Under the pieces are notes generated by a model, which worked only from the letters and a program-made list of their open reading frames with translations, searched no databases and was not told where the DNA came from. 44,626 nucleotides of DNA from Bacteroidaceae bacterium (lineage in GTDB: Bacteria; Bacteroidota; Bacteroidia; Bacteroidales; Bacteroidaceae): NCBI GenBank assembly GCA_017617575.1, contig JAFZVY010000029.1, positions 1 through 44,626 of the forward strand. The letters run 5' to 3'. This document shows, one piece after another, positions 2 through 15,467 of the stretch. The position numbers were made by a program, and so were the translations under genes. Position 1 is the first letter of the stretch. Every line of letters begins with the position of its first letter.

Positions 2-889
2 TTAGACAATATTTCTTTTTCCGTTCCAGATGGATCAATTTGTGCAATTGTTGGTCCTAATGGTGCGGGTAAGAGTACTTTGCTGAAAATTCTGACGAGA
101 ATTCTAAAATGTGATTCTGGTACAATTGCTTATAATCCTACGTTACCAACTAATTTATATAATCAAAAAATTGCGTATTTGCCAGAACAGAGAGGACTAT
201 ATACTGGTGTTGATATTGAGACTCAACTTGTTTTTTTTGCGGAGATAAGAGGACTAAATAAAAAACAGGCTCGTGAAAATGTAAATTATTGGCTTAAAAG
301 ATTTGGCATTGATAGCTGGAGATTTCGCCATGTTTCTGAGTTGTCAAAGGGAATGCAACAAAAGGTACAGTTTATTAGTTGTTTGGTAAGCAACCCTTCA
401 TTGATGTTTATGGACGAGCCTTTCTCAGGTGTTGATCCTGTTAATTTTAAGTTGTTTGCAGAAATACTTCTAGAATACCAGAAAGAACATGAAGCAACAG
501 TTGTTCTATCAACTCATAATATGAAGTCTGTAGAAGAATTATGTTCGGATGTTGTTATTATAAAAGACGGTAAAATTGAAATATCTGGAAATGTTAATGA
601 AGTGAAGCAAGCATATTCGAAGGGAAATTCATTGTTGTTGGACGTGAACATTGGAGACAATTTTGATTGTGTTAATGGTATATGCTCAAAGTTGAATAAT
701 AAGTTCCATATTATTACCTCAAATGTTGACCAAGGACATTTGTTCGTCGAAATTGTAGATTCTAGTTTGTCAAATTATTCAAAAAGTATGCAAAACGCTT
801 TGCAAACTTTAGAGGAATATGACGTGTATCAATGTTCTCGTAGAGTAATGTCTATGGAAGAAATTTTTATTGAATTAAACAAAAGATAA
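2..889 (+). CDS. ABC transporter ATP-binding protein, 5' partial
   Basis: The open frame enters from the left edge, so the true start lies outside; the first in-frame codons already read into the Walker A loop GPNGAGKST (about residues 18-26 of the visible part). The signature LSKGMQQK, Walker B LMFMDEPFSGVDP and the H-loop STHN follow in order, so the ATPase should be active. After the ATPase core there is a tail of about 110 residues like those of ABC-2 (NatA/CcmA/multidrug type) ATPases. It ends 11 bases before the permease gene and almost certainly pairs with it as an exporter. Codons are strongly A/T-ending, as in the next four genes. The substrate cannot be told from sequence; a peptide, lipid or drug export or self-immunity role is inferred from neighbours only. 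Confidence 0.93.
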   Translation, partial: LDNISFSVPDGSICAIVGPNGAGKSTLLKILTRILKCDSGTIAYNPTLPTNLYNQKIAYLPEQRGLYTGVDIETQLVFFAEIRGLNKKQARENVNYWLKRFGIDSWRFRHVSELSKGMQQKVQFISCLVSNPSLMFMDEPFSGVDPVNFKLFAEILLEYQKEHEATVVLSTHNMKSVEELCSDVVIIKDGKIEISGNVNEVKQAYSKGNSLLLDVNIGDNFDCVNGICSKLNNKFHIITSNVDQGHLFVEIVDSSLSNYSKSMQNALQTLEEYDVYQCSRRVMSMEEIFIELNKR

Positions 890-900
890 TATTTTCAATC

Positions 901-2106
901 ATGTTTAACAAAAGTTTATTTACCAGTGTTTTGAAATTTGAGCTTATGACTCAAATAAGAACAAAGTCTTTTTGGCTAATATCGCTTATTCCACCATTGG
1001 CCATGATTGTTATGTTTGTTGTCAATTACAATAGCGGGCACGTAGATTCAGTTTTGGTTGATAACAAAACAGATCTGTTTGAACCAATAGAGACAACTAA
1101 TAGTATGACTGTTTCGTATGGTTCAGATAATGATTGGCGTACTAATGGATATGATGCATGTGTGTTTTTGACTGATAGCAAAGATGGTAACATTAAGTGC
1201 AATATTATTTCCAAAAATATTTTATTGCCTGTTAACCAATTATCAATAAAAGATAACTTGGAGGTAAAGATGGCGGAATACAAATTGGGTGTAAACTTGG
1301 AAGAACTTAAAAAAAATGAAAGCAGAAAACTCTATATAGAATTACATAATGAGAATTCTAGATACAAACTTATGGGATTATCCCTGTCTGCGGTTTTTTT
1401 ATTGTATTTAATTGTCCTACAATTTGCAAGCTCAATTTTGAGAATGATAGGGAAAGAAAAGAAAAATAAGATTTGTGAAATACTTTTGTCTGCAATGTCA
1501 AGCAAAATGATAATGTCAGGAAAGCTGGTTGCATGTTTAATTGCTGCATTGTTACAGATGACATTGTGGTGTATAATTGCAGTTTCTGTTGTTTTTCTTT
1601 CTAAAGAAATGTCTATAATGTCATTTAACAATAATGCAATAGAAACATTACGCCTTATGATAACATCTGTTCCTTTTACACAATTAGTTGAGTTTGTTGT
1701 TTTGTATGTAATGTATCTTGTTGGAGGTTTTATGCTCTATTCAATATTATTTTCTATTATTGGTGCCATATCAAATGAGAATACAAACACACAACAATTC
1801 TCTTTGATTGTTACAATGCCGTTGTTACTATCATTCGTATATGTAATTAAGGATTTTGGAGCAGAAAGTAATATTTTAACTTCTCTATCTTATATTCCTT
1901 TATCAAGCCCTATAGCATCAATTCCTATATTTGCGAAACAAGGTGTCACAATGAATATTATATTATCATTGTTGATATTGTATTTGACAATTTACTTTGC
2001 ATTTAGATGTGCATGTGTTCTTTATGATAACGGGGCATTGGCAACGAAAAATAGAGTGACTCTAAAAACAATGAAAAGATGGATTTCTAAAGATCTGTTT
2101 AATTAA
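901..2106 (+). CDS. ABC-2 type transporter permease
   Basis: 401 residues. One membrane segment near the N-terminus (about residues 24-42) is followed by a polar extracytoplasmic domain (about 45-155) and then a cluster of about five hydrophobic segments from residue 158 onward. This is the NatB/ABC-2 permease layout. The stretch GKEKKNKICEILLSAMSS after the second helix matches the coupling region typical of ABC-2 permeases (E-x-L-L-S). It starts 11 bases after the ATPase stop and is followed 15 bases later by the beta-barrel gene, so one transcript is likely. The pair should form an inner-membrane exporter; what it exports is unknown. Confidence 0.88.
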   Translation: MFNKSLFTSVLKFELMTQIRTKSFWLISLIPPLAMIVMFVVNYNSGHVDSVLVDNKTDLFEPIETTNSMTVSYGSDNDWRTNGYDACVFLTDSKDGNIKCNIISKNILLPVNQLSIKDNLEVKMAEYKLGVNLEELKKNESRKLYIELHNENSRYKLMGLSLSAVFLLYLIVLQFASSILRMIGKEKKNKICEILLSAMSSKMIMSGKLVACLIAALLQMTLWCIIAVSVVFLSKEMSIMSFNNNAIETLRLMITSVPFTQLVEFVVLYVMYLVGGFMLYSILFSIIGAISNENTNTQQFSLIVTMPLLLSFVYVIKDFGAESNILTSLSYIPLSSPIASIPIFAKQGVTMNIILSLLILYLTIYFAFRCACVLYDNGALATKNRVTLKTMKRWISKDLFN

Positions 2107-2121
2107 ATTATCCATAAAAAT

Positions 2122-4743
2122 ATGAGAATATTATTCACATTAATATTCGTCTTGTGTTCGTATATTTTAGCGAGTGGACAAGGACATGTGAGTGGTAAAG
2201 TGTTTGATAACGACTCATGTGTTCTTGCCACGGCTAAAGTTATATTGCTCCATCAAAAAGACACAAGTATTGCTCAGATGACATATACGGATGATGATGG
2301 AAAGTTTGTCTTTGATGGAGTGGTTAAAGGAAGCTACTATGTTAAGGCTACTTATCTTAGTAGTAGTACGGCTCTGAAAAAAATAATAATCTGGAACCAA
2401 TCAAAAATCAATATTGAGTTATTTATTGATGATGCTCAACAGTTACAAGAGGTAAAAGTCGTTTCTACTGGCATTAATGTTAGTGGTGATACTACAACAT
2501 ATATTGTAAATCATTTCGTGTCAGGAAGCGAAAGGAATCTTAAAGATGTTCTTAATCAATTGCCAAATGTCAGGGTTGATGAAAATTCTAAGAGTATAAC
2601 GGCTAATGGCAAGCATGTAAGTCGTATCTTATTGGAAGGCCAGGATTTATTTCAGGGTAACACATCTATTCCTATGGATAATATTTCTGCCAATTCGGTA
2701 AGAAAGGTTGATGTTATTGACAATTACTCTGAATACAATATCTTTGATGGCTTTAAGACATCAAATGAAACTGTGGTAAATGTAGGCTTTGACGAAAAAT
2801 CACGTAACAGGATAAAAGGTGAAATAGAAGGGTATGGAGGGGTTGTAAATAAATATAAGATGCGTAATTCCTCAATTTATATTGGAAGCAAAAAAATGTT
2901 ATCAACAATTGTGTCTTCAAATAATGTTGGTGAACGCTTACTTTCATTCCAGGATATTATCCAGTTCAATGGTGGATATAAAAATCTATTGAGCGGAGAG
3001 AGTCCGACGGAAGAACTCTCTAAACAACTTGAGGATTATTCTGCATTTACAAATAATAAAAAGGATATTACTCAACGAAATAACAGCATGGCTGCGCTGA
3101 ATTATATCAATATCCCAAACGACAAAATCAAGATATCTTTTAGTGGAGTATATGGATATGATTTCTATCGTTCTCATAAGGAGATCGACTATGAGTATAT
3201 GTCAGGATTTAATTATCATGAAAGTTTAACAGAAAAGTCAGGACAGCATAATGGCTTGATGAATCTTAAAATGAGTTATATCCCGAATAAGAATTTTAGT
3301 ATTATATATACAGGAAACATGATAAATGCTTCACAAGATAAAAGCGGTAATAATGAATTAGGGTATAATCCTGTATCATACAACTCATTGTCACATATTT
3401 TATCTATTAATAATGCTGTTGTTTTAGCACAACGCTTGGGTAAAAATCTTTTGAGTTTCTCAATCAATCAGACTTTAAAAAATAATAATGAAAGGTATGA
3501 TTTCAAAAGTTCGGATTTATCATTTCTTAAAGGATTGAATCTTGACGACAAACGTGATTTTTATTATGAAAATGACAATAAGGCGATATCCATGCAATTG
3601 TTCTATATGTATAGAATAAATGATGCTTATTATTTGCGTCTGGCTGTTAATGGGGATTTAGAGAAACAAAACTTGTGCGCTTTTGATTGTGAACAGTATT
3701 CTATAAAAGATGAAAATGAGAACTCGGAATTAAATTACTCAAGTTTGTTTTCTGATGTACAAATAGGGCGAGACAGGGGCAAATTTGTTTATTCTGTAAG
3801 ATTGCGTTATATTCACAATAATGTGTGTACAAATATAAAAAAAGATTTTAATGACAATAAATCGAATGTTTTCTCTCCATTCATCCAGGCAAAGTACCAG
3901 TTTACGCCATTCCATTATATTATGACAAATTACAAATATGGAACAAACAGAAATTCAATTATGAATCTTTTTGACGGTCAATGGCTAAAGAGCTATAATC
4001 AACTGTATAAAAGTTCGGCTAATCGTTTCTTCAGTTCGTCACATAAGATATCATGTTCTCATTTGTTGTCATTACAATATAGTGGTTGGAATTTTCTTAA
4101 CACTTTGTCGTATGAATTCATAAATAATCCTATTTGCAATAATAACATACAGGAAGGAGTACTAAATATTACGGAGAAAAAAATAGGAGCCAAAGAGACA
4201 TCATTATCATTTATGTCGTCAGTTGAATATAAATTTGTTGATTTACCATTAAATATCAGGTATAATGTAAATTATAATCAGACACATTCTCCTATGCTTA
4301 ATGCTGGCACTCTTTATAATACGACCTCGAATAATGTTCAAATGATGTTGCAATTGAGAACATTTTTCAAGAAAGGGTTTAATTGTAAAATGGAATGGTC
4401 GGCTTTGAATATGAAATATTCAGGAACACCAACTGAAAATAAATATATGACAAATGATATTCTTGCATTAGTATCATGGCAAAACAAGGATATTTATGCG
4501 GATTTTAATGCTAAACTAAAGACATTCAATCTTAATCAGACAAAGACAAATAATGTATATTATGGCTTTGATTTCAGGTATAACATGTCAAAAAAACTCG
4601 TTTTAGAAGTATCTGGAACGGATATACTACACATAAACGAACGAAGACAATTGGTAGGAAATATATCATCTTATTATCTGTCTAAAAGTCTTACTTGGCA
4701 TTTGCCTGGTCATATTATTGCTGGAATAACAATGAAATATTAA
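2122..4743 (+). CDS. outer membrane beta-barrel protein with carboxypeptidase-regulatory-like domain
   Basis: 873 residues with a signal peptide ending near ILASGQ. Next comes a CarboxypepD_reg-like beta domain (about 22-110, GKVFDNDS...DDDGKFVFDGVVKGSYYVKA) and a plug-like region (about 115-230, containing LKDVLNQLPNVRVDE and the GFKTSNETVVNV stretch). The rest is a long barrel rich in aromatic/polar alternation, ending in a strand closing with MKY. This is the OMP_b-brl family of Bacteroidota, related to TonB-dependent receptors. No clear TonB box is visible. It sits directly between the ABC permease and a GLPGLI gene, an arrangement that suggests a trans-envelope export or uptake unit. The substrate is unknown. 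Confidence 0.85.
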   Translation: MRILFTLIFVLCSYILASGQGHVSGKVFDNDSCVLATAKVILLHQKDTSIAQMTYTDDDGKFVFDGVVKGSYYVKATYLSSSTALKKIIIWNQSKINIELFIDDAQQLQEVKVVSTGINVSGDTTTYIVNHFVSGSERNLKDVLNQLPNVRVDENSKSITANGKHVSRILLEGQDLFQGNTSIPMDNISANSVRKVDVIDNYSEYNIFDGFKTSNETVVNVGFDEKSRNRIKGEIEGYGGVVNKYKMRNSSIYIGSKKMLSTIVSSNNVGERLLSFQDIIQFNGGYKNLLSGESPTEELSKQLEDYSAFTNNKKDITQRNNSMAALNYINIPNDKIKISFSGVYGYDFYRSHKEIDYEYMSGFNYHESLTEKSGQHNGLMNLKMSYIPNKNFSIIYTGNMINASQDKSGNNELGYNPVSYNSLSHILSINNAVVLAQRLGKNLLSFSINQTLKNNNERYDFKSSDLSFLKGLNLDDKRDFYYENDNKAISMQLFYMYRINDAYYLRLAVNGDLEKQNLCAFDCEQYSIKDENENSELNYSSLFSDVQIGRDRGKFVYSVRLRYIHNNVCTNIKKDFNDNKSNVFSPFIQAKYQFTPFHYIMTNYKYGTNRNSIMNLFDGQWLKSYNQLYKSSANRFFSSSHKISCSHLLSLQYSGWNFLNTLSYEFINNPICNNNIQEGVLNITEKKIGAKETSLSFMSSVEYKFVDLPLNIRYNVNYNQTHSPMLNAGTLYNTTSNNVQMMLQLRTFFKKGFNCKMEWSALNMKYSGTPTENKYMTNDILALVSWQNKDIYADFNAKLKTFNLNQTKTNNVYYGFDFRYNMSKKLVLEVSGTDILHINERRQLVGNISSYYLSKSLTWHLPGHIIAGITMKY

Positions 4744-4769
4744 ATAAACATTTTATAAGATAAGTTAAC

Positions 4770-5477
4770 ATGAAAAAATTATTCTCTCTACTTGCCATAA
4801 CTCTTCAGATGGTTATGGCTCATGCACAGGAATTAACTGTGACATATCAGGCTGTATATAACAGCGATTCTCCAGACTTGTTTGCAACTGCTGGATTAAA
4901 TGAACAAATGAGAAGCAGTCTTGCTAATGCATACAAGGATGTAGTAATGAATTATAGACTTAAATTCAAGGACAATGAGAGTGAGTATCGTTTGATTCCT
5001 GGTGAAGGAAAACAGGAAATCACTTTTATGGGCCAAACAATAGATGTAAATGCTGCAGCATTGGCACAAGCGCAGAATTATACATATAAGAATCATAATG
5101 AGGGCGTCATTCTAGATAAAACTTCTGTCTTTGGAAAGGAATATATTGTCGTAGATAGTATTCGTTCTTCAGACTTCACTGAGGTTAAAGGTGAAAAGAA
5201 AATCATCCTTGGGTTTGAATGTATTAAGGCTGTTTCTTCAGATAAAAAAACAACCATTTGGTACACTCCACATATTCCGCTTAAAGATGAACCAATTGCA
5301 TGTGGTCTAAACGGGTTGGTATTACAATTTGACAATGGACAACAAACATATACTGCAACTGAGATAAACGATGTGGTAGAAGGTGATATTATAAAGCCAA
5401 CAGAAGGAAAGGTTATAAATAAAGCCGACTTTACAGAAATGGTTAATAAGAGAGTCGAAATGATGAAGCGTAACTGA
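4770..5477 (+). CDS. GLPGLI family protein
   Basis: 235 residues with an N-terminal signal peptide (about 1-19, ending VMAHAQ). The family is named after a motif near the C-terminal third that here reads GLNGLVLQF, preceded by the usual KIILGFECIKA and TIWYTPHIPL segments. GLPGLI proteins are secreted or periplasmic proteins of Bacteroidota with no proven function; they commonly follow an outer-membrane barrel gene, as here (26-base gap). The gene is AT-rich like its upstream neighbours and is followed by a strong hairpin. Confidence 0.9.
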   Translation: MKKLFSLLAITLQMVMAHAQELTVTYQAVYNSDSPDLFATAGLNEQMRSSLANAYKDVVMNYRLKFKDNESEYRLIPGEGKQEITFMGQTIDVNAAALAQAQNYTYKNHNEGVILDKTSVFGKEYIVVDSIRSSDFTEVKGEKKIILGFECIKAVSSDKKTTIWYTPHIPLKDEPIACGLNGLVLQFDNGQQTYTATEINDVVEGDIIKPTEGKVINKADFTEMVNKRVEMMKRN

Positions 5478-5533
5478 TATGTTTTGATAAAATCGTCTGA
5501 TTTACTAAAAAGACACATAAATCTTTTTTAGAG

Positions 5534-5562
5534 GGCTGTGGTAAAAACCTTTTACCACAGCC
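5534..5562 (+). terminator. perfect hairpin between GLPGLI gene and membrane-protein gene
   Basis: GGCTGTGGTAAAA pairs with TTTTACCACAGCC across a 3-base loop, a perfect 13-bp stem. It is not followed by a long T run on the plus strand, so it may be a weak terminator or attenuator. It ends 16 bases before the next start codon and so occupies the place where a ribosome would load. Confidence 0.6.
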
Positions 5563-5578
5563 TATAAATGTTATTGTT

Positions 5579-6253
5579 ATGATATACAGATTAAATGATT
5601 CGGATATTGTATTATGGACAACTGTTTGTTCCATATTGTTTTTGACGTTTTCTTTTGTTACCCTTAATCAAAAGAAAATGGCTGTTTTTATGAATTACTA
5701 TACTTTTGATTTGGATTGTTTGGGATATGTTTTCCTGATTCAAACGATGGGTGTTCTTCTTCTATATATTCCGATAAAAACAATTTTTGAGATAGATGGA
5801 TTCAATTATAATTCGCCATTACAATTTCTGAATTATTGCATCTTGTTCCCTATGATAATAGAATTTATTGTATGTGGTTTGTTCCTAAGATTCGTATCAC
5901 TATATATGAACAAGTTAGTTGCAATAGTCGGAAGCGCATTGTTAATATCCATGTTGCAAGAACAGGGTATGCTGATAATAGTATTTTGGGTAATATCTTT
6001 GTCCACTTGCATGGTATTCTATAAGAACCACAGCTTGATTTTCGTCATGTTTATGCATTCTATGACTAATCTTGTAATATTCTTGTTAAATAATCTCTCA
6101 TTATTAGGTGCTACCATACCGCTAAATAATGAAATACTTTTTGTAATATTTACAATAGGAATGTTGCTATATATTTATTCTGTATATCTTATAGGAAAGA
6201 GAAATGTTCATTCCATATTTCGCATTATCCAAAGGTTGAGGAAACGGTCATAG
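5579..6253 (+). CDS. CPBP-like (Abi) multipass membrane protein, degenerate
   Basis: 224 residues with about seven hydrophobic segments. Two pieces recall the CPBP intramembrane protease family: PMIIEFIVCGLFLRF where active members have EE...R, and FVMFMHSMTNLVIFLL where they have a conserved H and N. Of motif 1 only one E is present and the arginine position is C, so proteolytic activity is doubtful. CPBP proteins often serve as bacteriocin immunity or peptide-maturation proteins, which would suit the block; that is inference. The last 15 codons (6208-6253) are antisense to the end of a decayed ATPase gene, so the present C-terminus (IQRLRKRS) was probably gained when the block joined that sequence. 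Confidence 0.6.
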   Translation: MIYRLNDSDIVLWTTVCSILFLTFSFVTLNQKKMAVFMNYYTFDLDCLGYVFLIQTMGVLLLYIPIKTIFEIDGFNYNSPLQFLNYCILFPMIIEFIVCGLFLRFVSLYMNKLVAIVGSALLISMLQEQGMLIIVFWVISLSTCMVFYKNHSLIFVMFMHSMTNLVIFLLNNLSLLGATIPLNNEILFVIFTIGMLLYIYSVYLIGKRNVHSIFRIIQRLRKRS

Positions 6254-9407: not shown

Positions 9408-11177
9408 TCATTTCTTACAATTCTTCTCGTACCAGTCAACGTAGCTCTTGGCTGCAAGACGGGCACCTCCTTGTGTTGGGTAGTGGCCTGTGAAGTACCA
9501 GTCGCCCGGATGGTTTGGTATTGCAGAATGGAGTCCCTCTATTGTCTGGAACACGAGTTCGATAGGAGTGGTTACGCCTTCTGGACGGAGCAGCTTGACC
9601 ATTCTCTCGTTCAACTCGTCTGCCGTGAATGGCTCGTAGATGGAACGTATTGCCTCAAGGTCTCCTGCCTTGCACTTGGCGTAGGTATCGTCGAGTACGG
9701 ATGCCATGTTGCGCTCACGTAGTAATGATACGCATGCCTGGAATGCTATGAACTCTCCTATGCGACTCATGTCGATGCCGTAATAGTCAGGATAGCGAAT
9801 CTGTGGTGCGGAACTTACTATGACAATCTTCTTTGGGTGGAGACGGTCAAGAATCTTTATGATGCTTTCACGCAGGGTGGTACCGCGGACGATACTGTCG
9901 TCGATGACAACAAGGTTATCCACATAAGGCACAACGGAACCGAATGTAATGTCATAGACGTGTGCGGCAAGGTCGTTGCGTGTGCTTCCTTCCGTGATGA
10001 ATGTGCGCAGCTTGATGTCCTTCCATACCACCTTCTCCGTACGCACGTTAGGGGAGATGCTTCGCATACCGTCAAGCATACCGTAGTAGGCAACCTCTGC
10101 CGTATTAGGTATGTAGGAGAATACTGCATGCTCTATGTCGCCGTCAATCGCCTTGAGAATCTGGTCGCGCAACTGATAACCGAGTTGCTTGCGCTCCTTG
10201 TGGATGTCGTAGTCGTTGCCACGGCTGAAATAGATGCGCTCAAATGAGCAAGCCTTGTTCTCGGCAGCAGGCAGAATCTGTTCGAGGCGCATCTCGCCTG
10301 CACGATTGATGATGAGAGCCTGTCCGCGTTGCAACTCCTTAACGTCCTCAAGGTTGAGGTCGAATGTGGTCTGAAGAACTGGACGCTCACTTGCTATTGC
10401 CACAATCTCGTCGTCGGCATAGTAGAATGCAGGACGAATACCTGAAGGGTCACGCATGGAGAACATCTCTCCGCTACCAGTCATACCGCACATCACGTAG
10501 CCACCGTCAAAGTGAGGTAGGGTAGTCTTGAGGACGTTGCTCATGTCCACGTGTGAGTCTATATATTCGGTTATTGCCGTTGACTCCAGTCCGCGCTCCT
10601 TTGCCTCGACGAAGAGACGCTCCACTTCACGGTCAAGGCGATGACCCATAAGTTCGAGCATGATGTAAGAGTCGCTGTAGATACGTGGGCTTTGTCCCTG
10701 TTCCGTGAGGAAGGCAAACACCTCGTCGATGTTTGTCATGTTGAAGTTACCGCACAGACAGAGGTTCTTAGCCCTCCAGTTGTTGCGCCTCAGGAATGGG
10801 TGCACGTACTTGAGACCTCCCTTACCAGTAGTAGAATAACGAAGATGACCCATGTACAGTTCGCCAAGAAAGGCGGGTCCTGCAGATGGGTCATCTTCGT
10901 CGATGGATAATGCTTGCTGATAAATGGAGCCGAAGACCTTGGTGATGGCGTCTTTGCCCTCAGCCTTCTCTCTGTACATATATTCGTGTCCCGATGGTTG
11001 GTGGAGTTTGACACTGGCGACACCAGCTCCCTCCTGGCCTCTGTTATGCTGCTTTTCCATCATAAGGTAGAGCTTGCCAAGAGCGTAGTGCTTGTCGCCA
11101 TACTTCTTCTCGTAATAATCAAGCGGTTTGAGCAATCTAATCATTGCTATACCACATTCATGCTTTAATGATTCCAT
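9408..11177 (-). CDS. purF: amidophosphoribosyltransferase (PurF-type)
   Basis: 589 residues. PurF transfers the glutamine amide to PRPP in the first committed step of purine synthesis. The N-terminal nucleophile hydrolase domain has the catalytic Cys8 in HECGIAM after a short propeptide-like MESLKHE, then RGQEGAGV (46-53), GHLRYSTTG (110-118), CGNFNMTN (142-149) and DPSGIRP (243-249). The phosphoribosyltransferase part has the PRPP loop VVIDDSIVRGTT (423-434). The protein is longer than the roughly 500-residue E. coli PurF and carries an insertion early in the glutaminase domain; this is the long form seen in Bacteroidota, which often also have a second, shorter purF. Whether this paralogue is the main PurF cannot be decided here. 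Confidence 0.88.
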   Translation of the reverse strand: MESLKHECGIAMIRLLKPLDYYEKKYGDKHYALGKLYLMMEKQHNRGQEGAGVASVKLHQPSGHEYMYREKAEGKDAITKVFGSIYQQALSIDEDDPSAGPAFLGELYMGHLRYSTTGKGGLKYVHPFLRRNNWRAKNLCLCGNFNMTNIDEVFAFLTEQGQSPRIYSDSYIMLELMGHRLDREVERLFVEAKERGLESTAITEYIDSHVDMSNVLKTTLPHFDGGYVMCGMTGSGEMFSMRDPSGIRPAFYYADDEIVAIASERPVLQTTFDLNLEDVKELQRGQALIINRAGEMRLEQILPAAENKACSFERIYFSRGNDYDIHKERKQLGYQLRDQILKAIDGDIEHAVFSYIPNTAEVAYYGMLDGMRSISPNVRTEKVVWKDIKLRTFITEGSTRNDLAAHVYDITFGSVVPYVDNLVVIDDSIVRGTTLRESIIKILDRLHPKKIVIVSSAPQIRYPDYYGIDMSRIGEFIAFQACVSLLRERNMASVLDDTYAKCKAGDLEAIRSIYEPFTADELNERMVKLLRPEGVTTPIELVFQTIEGLHSAIPNHPGDWYFTGHYPTQGGARLAAKSYVDWYEKNCKK

Positions 11178-11205: not shown

Positions 11206-11236
11206 CAAATGTACGGAGTTTCCGTAATATGACAAA
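11206..11236 (-). promoter_or_regulatory. promoter of the purF-type gene
   Basis: On the minus strand TTTG (11233-11236) is followed after 19 bases by TACATTTG (11206-11213), the Bacteroidota consensus. The start codon at 11177 is about 29 bases downstream. No PurR-type box was recognised. Confidence 0.8.
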
Positions 11237-11341
11237 CATTAAGCGATAAAAAATTGTGTTTCGCTGATAAAAAGATTTTTTTTGAGCTCGATCTTTGCTT
11301 TTGCTTAAAATAAATTATTAACTAGACGATAAATTTGATAT

Positions 11342-13507
11342 TTAGTTAATGATAAAGTCTGATATCTGATTTTTACAAAGTTGATAAAATTCTCCTTTTC
11401 GCTTTATTAATTCTTCAAAATTGCCATTTTCGATAATTTTTCCCTTTTTGACAACAATAATTGAGTCCACATCTTTGATCGTGCTTAATCTGTGTGCTAT
11501 TATGATTACTGTTTTACCAGAAATAGCTAATGCGTCTATTGTATTTCTTACAAATAATTCTGAATTAGAATCTAGAGATGATGTTGCTTCGTCGAATATT
11601 ATAATTTCTGGATTTCTATACAAAGCTCTTGCAATGGAAATCTTTTGACGTTCTCCACCTGATAATGTAATACCATTTTCTCCTATTTGAGTGTCTATAC
11701 CATATGGTAAATCTTTTATAAAATCTGACATACCAAGATTATTAATTGTTTCCAATACTTTATTTATATTTGGCTTATCGTCTCCAAATGCAATATTAGA
11801 AAGTATAGTGCCAGAAAAAAGTTGAACTTTTTGAGGAATAATTCCTATTATGTCTTTTAGACATTCGTCAGAAATTGTAGTTACGTCATAATTCCCGATG
11901 TAAATATGACCGTCTTGTATATTATAAATGTTCTGAATTAATGACACAAGTGTAGTTTTTCCGCTACCACTTTCGCCCACTATTGCAGTTTTTCTCCCTT
12001 TCGTTATTCTAAGATTGATGTTGTTAAATAATAATTTATTTGCCCCATATCTAAAAGATACATTATCAAAGATTATATCTCCTATTTCGTCTTTTGTTAA
12101 TACATTTTCCTTTCTTTTGTTTTCGTTAGTTTCTAACTCCATTATTTGAAAAAGTCTATTTGATGCAATTATAGCTTCTTGTATTGATTTGTTTGAATTT
12201 ATAATGGTCTCTAATGGTGAAAGTATAATTTCTGTTAATGAAAAGAAAACAATTAATGTACCAATACTTATTTTTTCTTTAATAACGAAACTGCTTCCTA
12301 TATATAATATTGCGATAATGACAAAACTGGATAGAAAATTCGTGGCGCTGGTCGTGTGAATAGAATACTTTGAACTTTTGTAGATGTTATCTAAAACTTG
12401 TTGAAGTTTATTTTCGGTTAACTTCGTGGTATATTTTTCTGCATTAAATTCTTTTATTAGTAAAATAGATGATATGGATTCTACCATTTGAGATTCTAAT
12501 TCCGCGTTTGTCTCCATTATTTTTTTTTGAAATGTTTTATTAATATTATTATATTTCCAAAATATATAAACAAACACTGGGATAGAAATTAAAGTAATTA
12601 ATGATAATTCATATGAATACATGAACATGATTCCTATAGAAAATGATAGAACAAGACTACTTACAATTATATTTATAAATACATTATTTATAAATGTACG
12701 TATTTTGATTGCATCATTTATTCTCGACATTATTTCTCCAATGCGCATTGTATCAAAAAATATTTGAGGTAATTTTAGCAAATGGTTATAATACCCTAGT
12801 ATTAAAGCTTTATCAATAATTTTACTGGTCTTTAAAACTAGATGGCACTTGAATTCAGAAATAAAAATTCTAGCAATCATCATTATTACCATAATAATAC
12901 TCATGGTAATAATGAAACTGATGTTTTGATTTGTTGAAATTTCATCAATGATTCTACCTGCATAAATTGATGTCGACAGACTCAAAATACTACAAACAAT
13001 CGCTGATAATAAAATTTTTGTTAAAGCCCATTTATGTGTGTTTATAATGGAATAAAGTATGTGCTCTTTACGAACATCCCCCTTTTTAAAAGATTTACTT
13101 TTTTCTATAATAATTAATACACCTGTCCACATTTTACAAAAGTCAGACATACTTATTTTGTGCATCTTGCCATCTGCAGGATCCATGGTTTCTACAAAGT
13201 TATCATTTACTTTGTATATTACAACAAAATGTAATAATTTGTTGTTAACAATTATATGAGCGATTATCGGTAATGGAAGAATTCTCAAAGTGTTTTCATT
13301 GGCTTTTACGCCTTTAGCTGATAACCCTACTTTTTCTGCAGCATTTATTATCCCCCAGATATTAGTTCCTTTAATATTTGTAAAAGCGTGTTGGCGTATT
13401 TTAGCAATTGGATATTTTAATCCATAATATGCACATATAGATGATAAACACGCTGCTCCACAGTCTGTAATATCTTGCTGTTTTATTTTGATGCCTTTGT
13501 CGAACAT
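11342..13507 (-). CDS. peptide-cleaving ABC exporter with C39 peptidase domain
   Basis: About 721 residues from the ATG at 13507. An in-frame ATG at 13567 exists, but it lies at the -33 element, and the family normally begins just before the QQDITDCG motif. The C39 peptidase (about 1-130) has the triad Cys16 (DITDCGAAC), His93 (LHFVVIYK) and Asp109 (DPADG). The transmembrane domain (about 155-450) has six segments. The ATPase carries Walker A GESGSGKTT (511-519), LSGGERQK and IIIFDEATSSLD. Such exporters cut peptides after a Gly-Gly leader while pumping them out. The divergent peptide gene 150 bases away has exactly such a leader. No HlyD-like adaptor or TolC gene is next to it. The gene is very AT-rich. 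Confidence 0.95.
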   Translation of the reverse strand: MFDKGIKIKQQDITDCGAACLSSICAYYGLKYPIAKIRQHAFTNIKGTNIWGIINAAEKVGLSAKGVKANENTLRILPLPIIAHIIVNNKLLHFVVIYKVNDNFVETMDPADGKMHKISMSDFCKMWTGVLIIIEKSKSFKKGDVRKEHILYSIINTHKWALTKILLSAIVCSILSLSTSIYAGRIIDEISTNQNISFIITMSIIMVIMMIARIFISEFKCHLVLKTSKIIDKALILGYYNHLLKLPQIFFDTMRIGEIMSRINDAIKIRTFINNVFINIIVSSLVLSFSIGIMFMYSYELSLITLISIPVFVYIFWKYNNINKTFQKKIMETNAELESQMVESISSILLIKEFNAEKYTTKLTENKLQQVLDNIYKSSKYSIHTTSATNFLSSFVIIAILYIGSSFVIKEKISIGTLIVFFSLTEIILSPLETIINSNKSIQEAIIASNRLFQIMELETNENKRKENVLTKDEIGDIIFDNVSFRYGANKLLFNNINLRITKGRKTAIVGESGSGKTTLVSLIQNIYNIQDGHIYIGNYDVTTISDECLKDIIGIIPQKVQLFSGTILSNIAFGDDKPNINKVLETINNLGMSDFIKDLPYGIDTQIGENGITLSGGERQKISIARALYRNPEIIIFDEATSSLDSNSELFVRNTIDALAISGKTVIIIAHRLSTIKDVDSIIVVKKGKIIENGNFEELIKRKGEFYQLCKNQISDFIIN

Positions 13508-13536
13508 ATTTGTAGCAAATGATATGAAAATGTATT

Positions 13537-13567
13537 CAAAAATAATAATTTTTAATTTGTTGTACAA
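13537..13567 (-). promoter_or_regulatory. promoter of the C39 exporter
   Basis: Minus-strand TTG (13565-13567), 20 bases, then TATTTTTG (13537-13544). The start at 13507 is about 30 bases downstream, which decides against the in-frame ATG at 13567. Confidence 0.65.
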
Positions 13568-13585
13568 AAAAGATCGTTTTTTTTG

Positions 13586-13615
13586 TTGCTGTTTTTGTTT
13601 TTTTTCTTATGTTTG
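13586..13615 (+). promoter_or_regulatory. promoter of the double-glycine peptide operon
   Basis: TTG (13586-13588), 19 bases, then TATGTTTG (13608-13615); the start at 13658 is 43 bases downstream. It is back to back with the exporter promoter. The two -33 elements are separated only by the near-palindrome AAAAAAGATCGTTTTTT, a possible shared operator. Confidence 0.6.
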
Positions 13616-13657
13616 CATTGTTTTTTTATAAAATTAACTAATAATTATAAATGTTTT

Positions 13658-13855
13658 ATGGAAACAGAATATTTTATGCGTTCTTTAACAGAAGAAGAAC
13701 TACATTCAATTTATGGTGGTAGTATTTTTAGTAGCATTTTAGCTTGGTTTAAGCGCCATTTCTTTAAGGAAAAGGTTGATGAGCATAGCTTTGAGTCAAT
13801 GAGTACCCATGGATATGACGGTACTACTATGTATGGATTTGGTTTTGATATCTAA
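13658..13855 (+). CDS. double-glycine leader peptide precursor (bacteriocin/pheromone-like)
   Basis: 65 residues from the ATG at 13658. A longer in-frame reading from 13583 would start within its own promoter and adds only low-complexity hydrophobic codons. The leader (21 residues) ends with SLTEEELHSIYGG, the classical L..I.GG cleavage signature for C39 exporters. The predicted mature peptide is 44 residues: an amphipathic, aromatic and basic first half (SIFSSILAWFKRHFFKEK) and a His/Gly/Tyr/Asp-rich tail ending GFGFDI. It contains no cysteine, so it is neither disulphide-linked nor a lanthipeptide, and no radical-SAM or cyclase gene lies nearby. The next gene starts 3 bases after its stop. 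Confidence 0.85.
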   Translation: METEYFMRSLTEEELHSIYGGSIFSSILAWFKRHFFKEKVDEHSFESMSTHGYDGTTMYGFGFDI

Positions 13856-13858
13856 TTT

Positions 13859-14170
13859 ATGTCTGCAGGTCTTCTACTCTTTTTAGCGTTAAATCTTTTG
13901 TCGTGTAAAATTTATGCACAAAATGACAAGGATACTGCGTTTGTAAAGGTTGATTCGTTGTGTCAAAGAAATGCAAAGCAATATCTTGACACAACGAATT
14001 ATGTTTTACGTTATTATTCTTTTTGTAGGTTGAATGATAGTGTAGCAAAAAATAAAAAAACAAAAGATATTAACCCTTTTTTTTATAAATACAAAAAAAC
14101 GGATTTTTACAAAAAAAAATTTGAAAAAATGGAATTTATAAATATAATAAGATCAATTGTTTCAAAATGA
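13859..14170 (+). CDS. small exported protein of the peptide operon
   Basis: 103 residues; family not recognised. The N-terminus is a hydrophobic export signal containing LNLLSC (a possible lipobox, Cys16), with IYAQ as an alternative signal-peptidase I site. The remainder is polar, rich in Lys, Asp, Tyr and Phe, with a basic C-terminal half. It is packed between the peptide gene (3-base gap) and the protease gene (ATGA overlap), so it is co-translated with both. An immunity or chaperone role would suit that position; this is inference. Confidence 0.65.
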   Translation: MSAGLLLFLALNLLSCKIYAQNDKDTAFVKVDSLCQRNAKQYLDTTNYVLRYYSFCRLNDSVAKNKKTKDINPFFYKYKKTDFYKKKFEKMEFINIIRSIVSK

Positions 14171-15000
14171 AATTATTATTTTTTTTACTTTTTTTCATTT
14201 GTTATTCTGTTGCTTCGGTTGGGCAATCTAGTTTAATTGAAAAAGATGGTTTTTTGTATACAAATACAATTTTGTATTCAGAGAAAGATATCCCTGTGTT
14301 GTCTCTTATTGACACAGGATGTAGTTTGTGTGTTATAGATTCTACATTTGTAAGTAAAAATATTGTTATAAATAGTTTAGATAGTAATTATGTGTTGATT
14401 AATTCCAATAATTATAAAGTATCCTTTTGTGTAATTGACTCGTTATTTTTTTGTGGAAAAAAATATCAAAATGTTAAATGTTTTGTTGCAGATCTTAAAG
14501 GGAAATATAGACGTTATGCTCCAGAATTCATAATAGGTGCAGAAATTTTAAAAGACAGAATTTTGAAATTTGATCGCTATACAAAAAAAATAGAACCATT
14601 AAATGTAAAGTGTAAAGAAAAAGGGGACGTTTATAAATGGAAGGATTGGAAATCTTTTGGTGACATTCCATACGAGTCAATAGTTTTTGAATGTGAAATA
14701 GATAAAGAAAAATATAATTTTATTTTTGATTCTGGAAGTAAAAAAAATAAATTGCCAAGAGGAATACAATTCGCAGATTATGAGTTGGTAAAAGTTGAAT
14801 CTGCTAATTTGCTGCACTCTCTTTCGATTCAGGAACAAAGGGTTTACAAAAATACATGTGTGAAAATTGCTGGCAGATCGAATTGTTTGGATTTTTATGA
14901 AGGACAAAATAAGTATGGTCAACTAAATTTGGATTTGTTAAATGGACATTCTTTTGTCCTAAATTATAGTGAAAAAAAACTAATCGTACTTCCATACTAA
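14167..15000 (+). CDS. secreted two-domain retropepsin-like aspartic protease
   Basis: 277 residues with a signal peptide (about 1-19, ending SVGQ). It has two retropepsin-like halves in one chain. The first has LSLIDTGCSLCVID with Asp49-Thr-Gly and the hydrophobic-Gly motif FIIGAEIL (about 121-128). The second has FIFDSGSKKNKLP with Asp188-Ser-Gly and a closing LNLDLLNGHSFVLNY stretch. Both catalytic aspartates are present, so it could form an active pepsin-like pseudodimer in the periplasm. It overlaps the upstream gene by ATGA. It might trim the exported peptide, protect the producer by destroying it, or act on the neighbour protein. Bacteroidota have other aspartyl proteases of this type, but the pairing with a Gly-Gly peptide is notable. 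Confidence 0.8.
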   Translation: MKLLFFLLFFICYSVASVGQSSLIEKDGFLYTNTILYSEKDIPVLSLIDTGCSLCVIDSTFVSKNIVINSLDSNYVLINSNNYKVSFCVIDSLFFCGKKYQNVKCFVADLKGKYRRYAPEFIIGAEILKDRILKFDRYTKKIEPLNVKCKEKGDVYKWKDWKSFGDIPYESIVFECEIDKEKYNFIFDSGSKKNKLPRGIQFADYELVKVESANLLHSLSIQEQRVYKNTCVKIAGRSNCLDFYEGQNKYGQLNLDLLNGHSFVLNYSEKKLIVLPY

Positions 15001-15467
15001 TGTTTGAAATTACTCAAGTTATGCTAGTGCTTAACTTGTCGTGTCTTTATGCTCCTTTTTTTGTTTTATCTACAATCATAAAATCTTATGGCATATGACT
15101 GAACTATCAGAGCAACCTTTTGTATAGAACAAACGAAAATTGAAAAAATGTTCTAAATTGCTTTATTATTGCTTCGTCGAAAAAAATACTGTTTTTTCGG
15201 AAGGAGATATTAAATGTACTTGTGGGAAAATAACGTTCGATAGTTAATGTAAATATCTGTAATTTATGTTGATATTGTTAGCGTATATTGTAAATCATTG
15301 CTATTTAAATCATATTGATAGTTTATCTTTAACTTGTGAAAGTGTGTGCTCTAATTTTATATACTCTTATTTTGGTGATAAATATTTAATGTGTATAATT
15401 AAAATACAGACTGTTGTGTTTTGTTTCGTAAAGTTTTTATAATTCATATGCATTTAGCACGAAACAC
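15001..15467. other. long AT-rich gap before thrA
   Basis: No gene that I can support lies here. A weak hairpin (CGAAAAAA 15178-15185 with TTTTTTCG 15192-15199) may end the peptide operon transcript. A 25-codon frame from 15020 has no supporting features. No riboswitch or attenuator of threonine type was recognised. Confidence 0.5.

What the first reader, a model, noticed from the sequence alone, without database searches (positions are those of the whole stretch)
11342..15000. Compact Gly-Gly peptide locus with its own aspartic protease
A C39 ABC exporter diverges from an operon of leader peptide (ELHSIYGG), small exported protein and secreted two-domain aspartic protease, with 3-base and ATGA junctions. 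There are no modification enzymes and no HlyD or TolC partner. Known C39 systems (established) cut leaders with the exporter alone; a dedicated periplasmic aspartic protease in the same operon is unusual and suggests a second processing step or self-protection. The block is AT-rich and looks acquired.
Basis: partly seen in the sequence, partly recalled or inferred. Interest (0 to 1): 0.85.

Follow-up and report, generated by a model that had tools for sequence, protein, structure and literature searches.

The report
Mobile peptide cassette with aspartic protease
A small gene block, absent from a close relative, encodes an exported peptide, its exporter and, in the peptide's operon, a secreted aspartic protease that may protect the producer from the peptide or trim it; this is read from DNA only and is untested.

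Summary
A 4.2-kb AT-rich block (11230-15450) holds a C39 exporter (start probably ATG 13507) and, divergently, an operon of Gly-Gly leader peptide, small exported protein (SML) and two-domain secreted aspartic protease (ASP). A sister genome has the same two neighbour genes without the block. The peptide is real: a homologue with the same leader type and mature N-terminus lies 22 bases from an ASP homologue in Bacteroides pyogenes, arranged differently; no other strong homologue was found in 399 family and 393 order genomes (overlapping sets). But only 1 of 19 ASP loci has such a peptide, none of 27 outside loci has a C39 exporter within the DNA held, B. pyogenes has no detected C39 domain, and a near-identical ASP sits without the peptide beside two integrase genes in Segatella baroniae. 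This leans to a self-protection or resistance protease rather than a dedicated maturation enzyme, but an unrelated role is not excluded and nothing here tests function. The missing HlyD is odd for this exporter branch (14 of 14 relatives have one), though bacteroidetocin loci also lack it. New variant of a known kind.

The parts
11230..15450 (.). block (4,221 bp) between a purF-like gene and thrA; holds the four genes below
   Evidence: In sister genome G065 (L130) flanks align up to 11229 and from 15451, with 158 bp between
11342..13507 (-). C39 peptidase ABC exporter, 721 aa from ATG 13507 (ORF opens at TTG 13567)
   Evidence: Pfam and NCBIfam; start by comparison with relatives; only C39 match in this assembly, rated 86% complete
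13094..13486 (-). Peptidase_C39 domain of the exporter
13508..13657 (.). divergent spacer with TAnnTTTG at 13608-13615 (+) and 13537-13544 (-), recalled as the Bacteroidales -7 element; consensus match only
   Evidence: 55 matches in the window against 38 (sd 7) in shuffles, so single matches say little
13658..13855 (+). precursor peptide, 65 aa
   Evidence: homologue in B. pyogenes
13676..13720 (+). 15-residue leader ending Gly-Gly (from the second ATG, 13676)
   Evidence: leader scoring
13721..13852 (+). predicted 44-residue mature peptide with an N-terminal amphipathic segment
   Evidence: hydrophobic moment, no control run; similarity of mature parts
13859..14170 (+). SML, 103-aa small exported protein
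   Evidence: signal-like N-terminus by eye; similar small proteins just upstream of ASP in L060 and L062
14167..15000 (+). ASP, secreted two-motif aspartic protease of clan AA (PF13650)
14311..14319 (+). first motif Asp-Thr-Gly (D49)
14728..14736 (+). second motif Asp-Ser-Gly (D188)

Best explanation
The block is a compact, horizontally mobile cassette for an unmodified (class II-like) bacteriocin-type peptide. Shown by sequence: a C39 exporter with its conserved C39 residues, one precursor with a 15-residue Gly-Gly leader, a small exported protein, a secreted two-motif aspartic protease, and a neighbouring genome without the block. Inferred: the exporter cuts after Gly-Gly and delivers the 44-residue peptide across the inner membrane; with no HlyD/TolC partner in the block it reaches the periplasm first and leaves by a route not encoded here. 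ASP, sent to the same place by its signal sequence, most likely protects the producer by cutting (or holding) peptide that accumulates there or comes back, that is, it is a proteolytic immunity protein; SML probably works with it. Copies of the protease without the peptide in other species would then be resistance genes.
For: Unit: the sister genome lacks this stretch and no more. Peptide-ASP link: of 399 genomes of the family 2 have a peptide match below E 1e-6, the window's own and B. pyogenes; next best E 0.003. Of 393 genomes of the order (a set that also holds both of these) 3 match at E 0.001 or better, the third a weak 4.6e-4 with a stop inside. In B. pyogenes the peptide lies 22 bases from an ASP homologue, convergent rather than co-directional; its ASP falls in a starred subgroup that leaves out the window ASP, so the link holds with rather different ASPs. 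Protection rather than maturation: B. pyogenes keeps an ASP reading frame with both motifs but has no C39 match; 18 of 19 ASP loci show no leader peptide in the DNA held; a 968-bp stretch holding the ASP gene is 96% identical in B. pyogenes and S. baroniae with different flanks, in the latter beside two integrase genes; three ASP pairs look constrained (dN/dS 0.015/0.066, 0.026/0.184, 0.034/0.157). SML: L060-L062 0 of 5000 shuffles, window-L062 16 of 5000.
Against: No call shows that ASP touches the peptide or that the peptide kills anything. The window is the only ASP locus seen with a C39 exporter: 0 of 27 outside ASP loci have one in the DNA held. ASP is mostly found without the peptide, so it may have an unrelated role. 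Of 9 genomes with ASP or ASP fragments, 6 do have a C39 domain somewhere, so carriage without an exporter is not general. Absence of peptides and exporters is limited by search methods, short contigs and completeness. The window ASP sits on a long branch whose place is unsure. Window SML versus L060 SML is only weakly above shuffles (121 of 5000). Two-step maturation has precedent. Bacteroidetocin producers were reported to lack self-protection, so a producer need not carry immunity. The mature window peptide has net charge -2 (first 18 residues +3), the B. pyogenes one +2 (first 18 residues 0), so an antimicrobial character is not obvious.
Confidence: 0.45

Rival explanations
1. Second processing step: after the exporter removes the leader, ASP trims the 44-residue peptide in the periplasm (for instance its long tail) to the active form.
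For: Same operon, ASP overlapping SML by ATGA; two-step removal by an exporter and then a second protease is known for cytolysin and lichenicidin (PMC10885120, passages); window and B. pyogenes peptides share a 17-residue start of the mature part but differ in tail length and sequence, as a removable tail would allow.
Against: B. pyogenes has peptide and ASP but no C39 match; ASP is mostly without a peptide and has moved without it; the second proteases in the passages read are serine proteases, and 'aspart' occurs in that review only in a reference title.
Confidence: 0.2
2. ASP (with SML) has an unrelated envelope role and came with the peptide genes by chance or as general cargo.
For: 18 of 19 ASP loci show no leader peptide and 27 of 27 no C39 exporter; secreted retropepsin-like proteases of Pseudomonas aeruginosa serve osmotic stress tolerance (PMC12239564, passages); a related branch (L038-L040) lacks both motifs (read by eye).
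Against: The only two strong peptide loci found are both beside an ASP, in different arrangements; the block that the sister genome lacks holds only these four genes.
Confidence: 0.25
3. The peptide is a signal rather than a toxin, and ASP ends the signal by degrading it.
For: Gly-Gly leaders also occur on pheromones (recalled); weak NCBIfam similarity, below the curated cut-offs, to pheromone_VP1 and ComC models as well as lactococcin G models.
Against: Only four genes in the block and none looks like a sensor or regulator; the leader similarity only reflects the Gly-Gly motif.
Confidence: 0.1

Closest known systems
Bacteroidetocins (class IIa-like peptides of Bacteroidales; Coyne et al. 2019, PMC6671954)
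   Same: Small peptide and double-glycine peptidase ABC exporter in one compact locus; no HlyD or TolC among the four genes that sufficed (section 7 read)
   Different: Their loci carry a five-TM protein and a thiol oxidoreductase and no immunity protein; this block has neither, its mature peptide has no Cys, and it has an aspartic protease
HlyD-C39 exporter loci of related genomes (L044-L057), several with Gly-Gly peptides
   Same: Exporter 42-53% identical
   Different: 14 of 14 have HlyD nearby (in L047 in two pieces), 9 of 14 a TolC-like gene in the DNA held, some CPBP proteins; the window has no HlyD or TolC relative
Cytolysin CylB/CylA and lichenicidin LicT/LicP (lanthipeptides)
   Same: C39 exporter plus a second secreted protease in the pathway (passages of PMC10885120)
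   Different: Second protease is a serine protease and the peptides are modified
Retropepsin-like secreted proteases such as RloA of Pseudomonas (PMC12239564)
   Same: Secreted bacterial clan AA protease with a DTG motif
   Different: Classed as retropepsin-like in the passages read; ASP has two motifs in one chain and sits with a peptide gene
Nisin resistance protein NSR (mechanism recalled; named in a title in the listing, paper not read)
   Same: A protease that protects against a bacteriocin is the mechanism proposed here
   Different: Another enzyme class and a modified peptide (recalled)

Membership tests
C39 peptidase-containing ABC exporter (PCAT) | C39, transmembrane and ATPase domains in one chain with conserved C39 Cys, His and Asp | tested here: met
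Class II-like double-glycine peptide | Short precursor with leader ending Gly-Gly next to a C39 exporter and no modification enzymes | tested here: met
Class II-like double-glycine peptide | Antibacterial activity | not testable with these tools
   needs the peptide
Bacteroidetocin | Five-TM protein and thiol oxidoreductase in the locus | tested here: not met
   four genes in the block, none of these
Type I secretion (HlyD and TolC partners) | HlyD and TolC relatives at the locus | tested here: not met
   none among window ORFs; in the assembly only weak HlyD-like matches, best E 1.9e-7 at 25% identity; TolC was not sought in the rest of the assembly
Clan AA aspartic protease (PF13650) | Profile match over the curated cut-off and the D-T/S-G motif | tested here: met
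   26.3 bits against a cut-off of 24.3; 15 of 15 members match at E 0.01 or better
Clan AA aspartic protease (PF13650) | Two lobes forming one active site | tested here: inconclusive
Bacteriocin immunity protein | Confers protection on a sensitive strain | not testable with these tools
   genetic linkage only

The most novel reading that the evidence does not exclude
ASP is the first of a family of mobile aspartic proteases that give peptide-specific immunity to Gly-Gly peptides of Bacteroidales: beside the peptide in producers and passed alone between species as resistance genes, with SML as a partner and with one branch without catalytic motifs that protects by binding.
Probability: 0.25. 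Interest if true: 0.75.

Novelty: new variant of a known kind. Interest (0 to 1): 0.5.

Why it matters
[quoted passage not shown] A protease tied to one peptide and moving between species would give a directly testable answer and a marker for finding such peptides. In the papers listed or read here (searches; open-licence library only) I saw no aspartic protease used in this way.

Tried and rejected
A single-protein ASP scan of genome contigs found none; the alignment scan, which needs an exact match to one of two short patterns, found 19 loci. ASP on plasmids: no match; peptide on plasmids: none; peptide in viral contigs: none; ASP in viral contigs: one, L128, practically identical to the S. 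baroniae region L073. A second family of two-motif aspartic proteases (L051, fragment in L047) looked like parallel support: 7 of 61 genomes carry it, 2 of these 7 loci have a C39 exporter (L051, L047) and 5 of 7 do not in the DNA held (L118-L122); its profile similarity to ASP is modest (83% probability, E 8.7e-6), so it was set aside. Other regex Gly-Gly hits in the ASP loci L061, L071, L072, L077 and L078 lie within ORFs of 128-159 residues that look like parts of long unrelated proteins and were dropped. Low-scoring leader hits in L061 (7.0) and L071 (6.6), both over 7 kb from ASP, were dropped; the window and B. pyogenes leaders, which are in that matrix, score 28.4 and 28.6. Weak peptide matches were not counted: 100 of 399 genomes have a best match between E 0.003 and 1, and one has 4.6e-4. 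Repeats and sigma-70-type promoter and terminator scans gave nothing that I could use.

Results against the reading: the leader motif alone is exceeded in at least 1 of 100 shuffles; SML similarity window-L060 is weak, and phmmer with window SML found no SML relative at E 0.01 or better in the 19 loci; no ASP locus outside the window has a C39 exporter near; the window ASP is on a long branch.
Full report
What is there. Between a purF-like gene (11177..9408, -; name recalled, Pfam shows only glutamine amidotransferase domains) and a bifunctional aspartokinase-homoserine dehydrogenase gene, here called thrA (15531, +), lies an AT-rich stretch with four genes: a C39 exporter on the minus strand and, divergently, a leader peptide, a small exported protein (SML) and a secreted aspartic protease (ASP).

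The block is present or absent as a whole. The thrA fragment was found in 43 of 45 genomes of the genus; the 30 loci given were examined, one of them the window. In one, G065 (fragment 96% identical), the purF-like gene is the neighbour of thrA; flanking DNA aligns up to window 11229 and again from 15451, with 158 bp between in G065. In the other 28 no purF-like gene lies in the 1.5 kb or less held on either side. Neither ASP nor exporter was seen in any of the 29 other loci. The comparison of boundaries thus rests on one genome, and it fits gain better than loss, since the exporter at E 1e-100 was found in 1 of 45 genomes of the genus; that is inference.

The peptide is real. Its leader is typical, but motif scoring alone would not prove it (13.8 against a best of 15.2 in 100 shuffles). 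The proof is a homologue in B. pyogenes DSM 19673 (L037 = L076): the same leader type and the same start of the mature part (0 of 5000 shuffles). It is the only other strong match in 399 family genomes and in 393 order genomes; the two sets overlap.

Peptide and protease go together in both places. In B. pyogenes the peptide gene ends 22 bases from the end of an ASP homologue, on the opposite strand. The two ASPs are 30% identical and the B. pyogenes one is in a starred subgroup that leaves out the window's (with a long-branch warning), while the peptides are 52% identical. So the pairing has survived, or been made twice, with rather different proteases.

But the protease also lives without the peptide. 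Of 19 loci from a scan of genome contigs (84,980 species by its description), 1 has a leader peptide by regex in the DNA held, up to 8 kb on each side. A score-based scan of 23 loci, overlapping the first set, found the same one and two low hits over 7 kb away. None of 27 outside ASP loci has a C39 exporter in the DNA held. ASP matches at E 1e-6 or better occur in 10 of 399 family genomes. B. pyogenes has no C39 match in a genome rated 99% complete; of the 9 genomes asked, 6 have one. In Segatella baroniae a 968-bp stretch with the ASP gene is 96% identical to B. pyogenes, with different flanks; two integrase genes lie beside it and no leader peptide was found. Fragments of ASP occur in the window's own genome and in two relatives. 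One branch (L038-L040) lacks both motifs (by eye). A gene that is kept where no exporter is found, moves without the peptide and in one branch has lost the catalytic motifs behaves more like an immunity or resistance gene than like a maturation enzyme; this is inference, and an unrelated role would also fit.

SML. Small proteins with a signal-like start and a similar C-terminal part lie immediately upstream of ASP in B. cellulosilyticus (L060) and an uncultured Prevotella (L062); a model built from the three found no further one in the loci then held. L060 and L062 are clearly related (0 of 5000 shuffles), the window protein to L062 less (16 of 5000) and to L060 weakly (121 of 5000). SML and ASP may form a pair.

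Exporter. Relatives at 42-53% identity have an HlyD gene nearby in 14 of 14 loci, in one of them in two pieces, and a TolC-like gene in 9 of 14. The window has neither. Of the three more distant relatives (30-34%), L033 has an HlyD-like gene beside it, L058 one further off, L059 none. Bacteroidetocin loci show that such an exporter can serve without these partners in the locus (section 7 of PMC6671954).

Known or new. I found no paper that joins an aspartic protease to a double-glycine peptide (searches: listings seen; section 7 and passages of PMC6671954; passages of PMC10352776, PMC12239564, PMC10885120 and PMC13289728). The block is a variant of the known Gly-Gly peptide cassette; the aspartic protease is the new element. 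Its role rests on linkage alone until tested.

Noticed in passing
window 80-6253: A second AT-rich stretch with an ABC-2 transporter pair, an 873-aa protein with carboxypeptidase-regulatory-like domains, a GLPGLI protein and an Rce1-like (CPBP) protein. The regex scan showed only a 14-residue ORF with a leader-like motif there.
   Followed up: partly
L043 79-606 (own genome contig C134): Remnant of a second ASP, N-terminal part only, near the end of a contig.
   Followed up: partly
L038, L039, L040: ASP relatives, in L040 two in a row, that lack both catalytic motifs.
   Followed up: partly
L073 and L128: ASP beside two genes of the phage-integrase family, almost identical in S. baroniae and a contig of the viral collection.
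   Followed up: partly
L051 379-1209; L118-L122: Another family of two-motif aspartic proteases in 7 of 61 genomes of one genus, near a C39 exporter in 2 of 7 loci.
   Followed up: partly
L037 7224-8063: Match of the B. pyogenes ASP to a PADLOC phage-defence candidate model, PDC-M08B, E 7e-9; for the window ASP only 0.009.
   Followed up: no
L059 9512-11424: Four similar Gly-Gly peptides with cysteines near a distant C39 exporter, bacteroidetocin-like in look.
   Followed up: no
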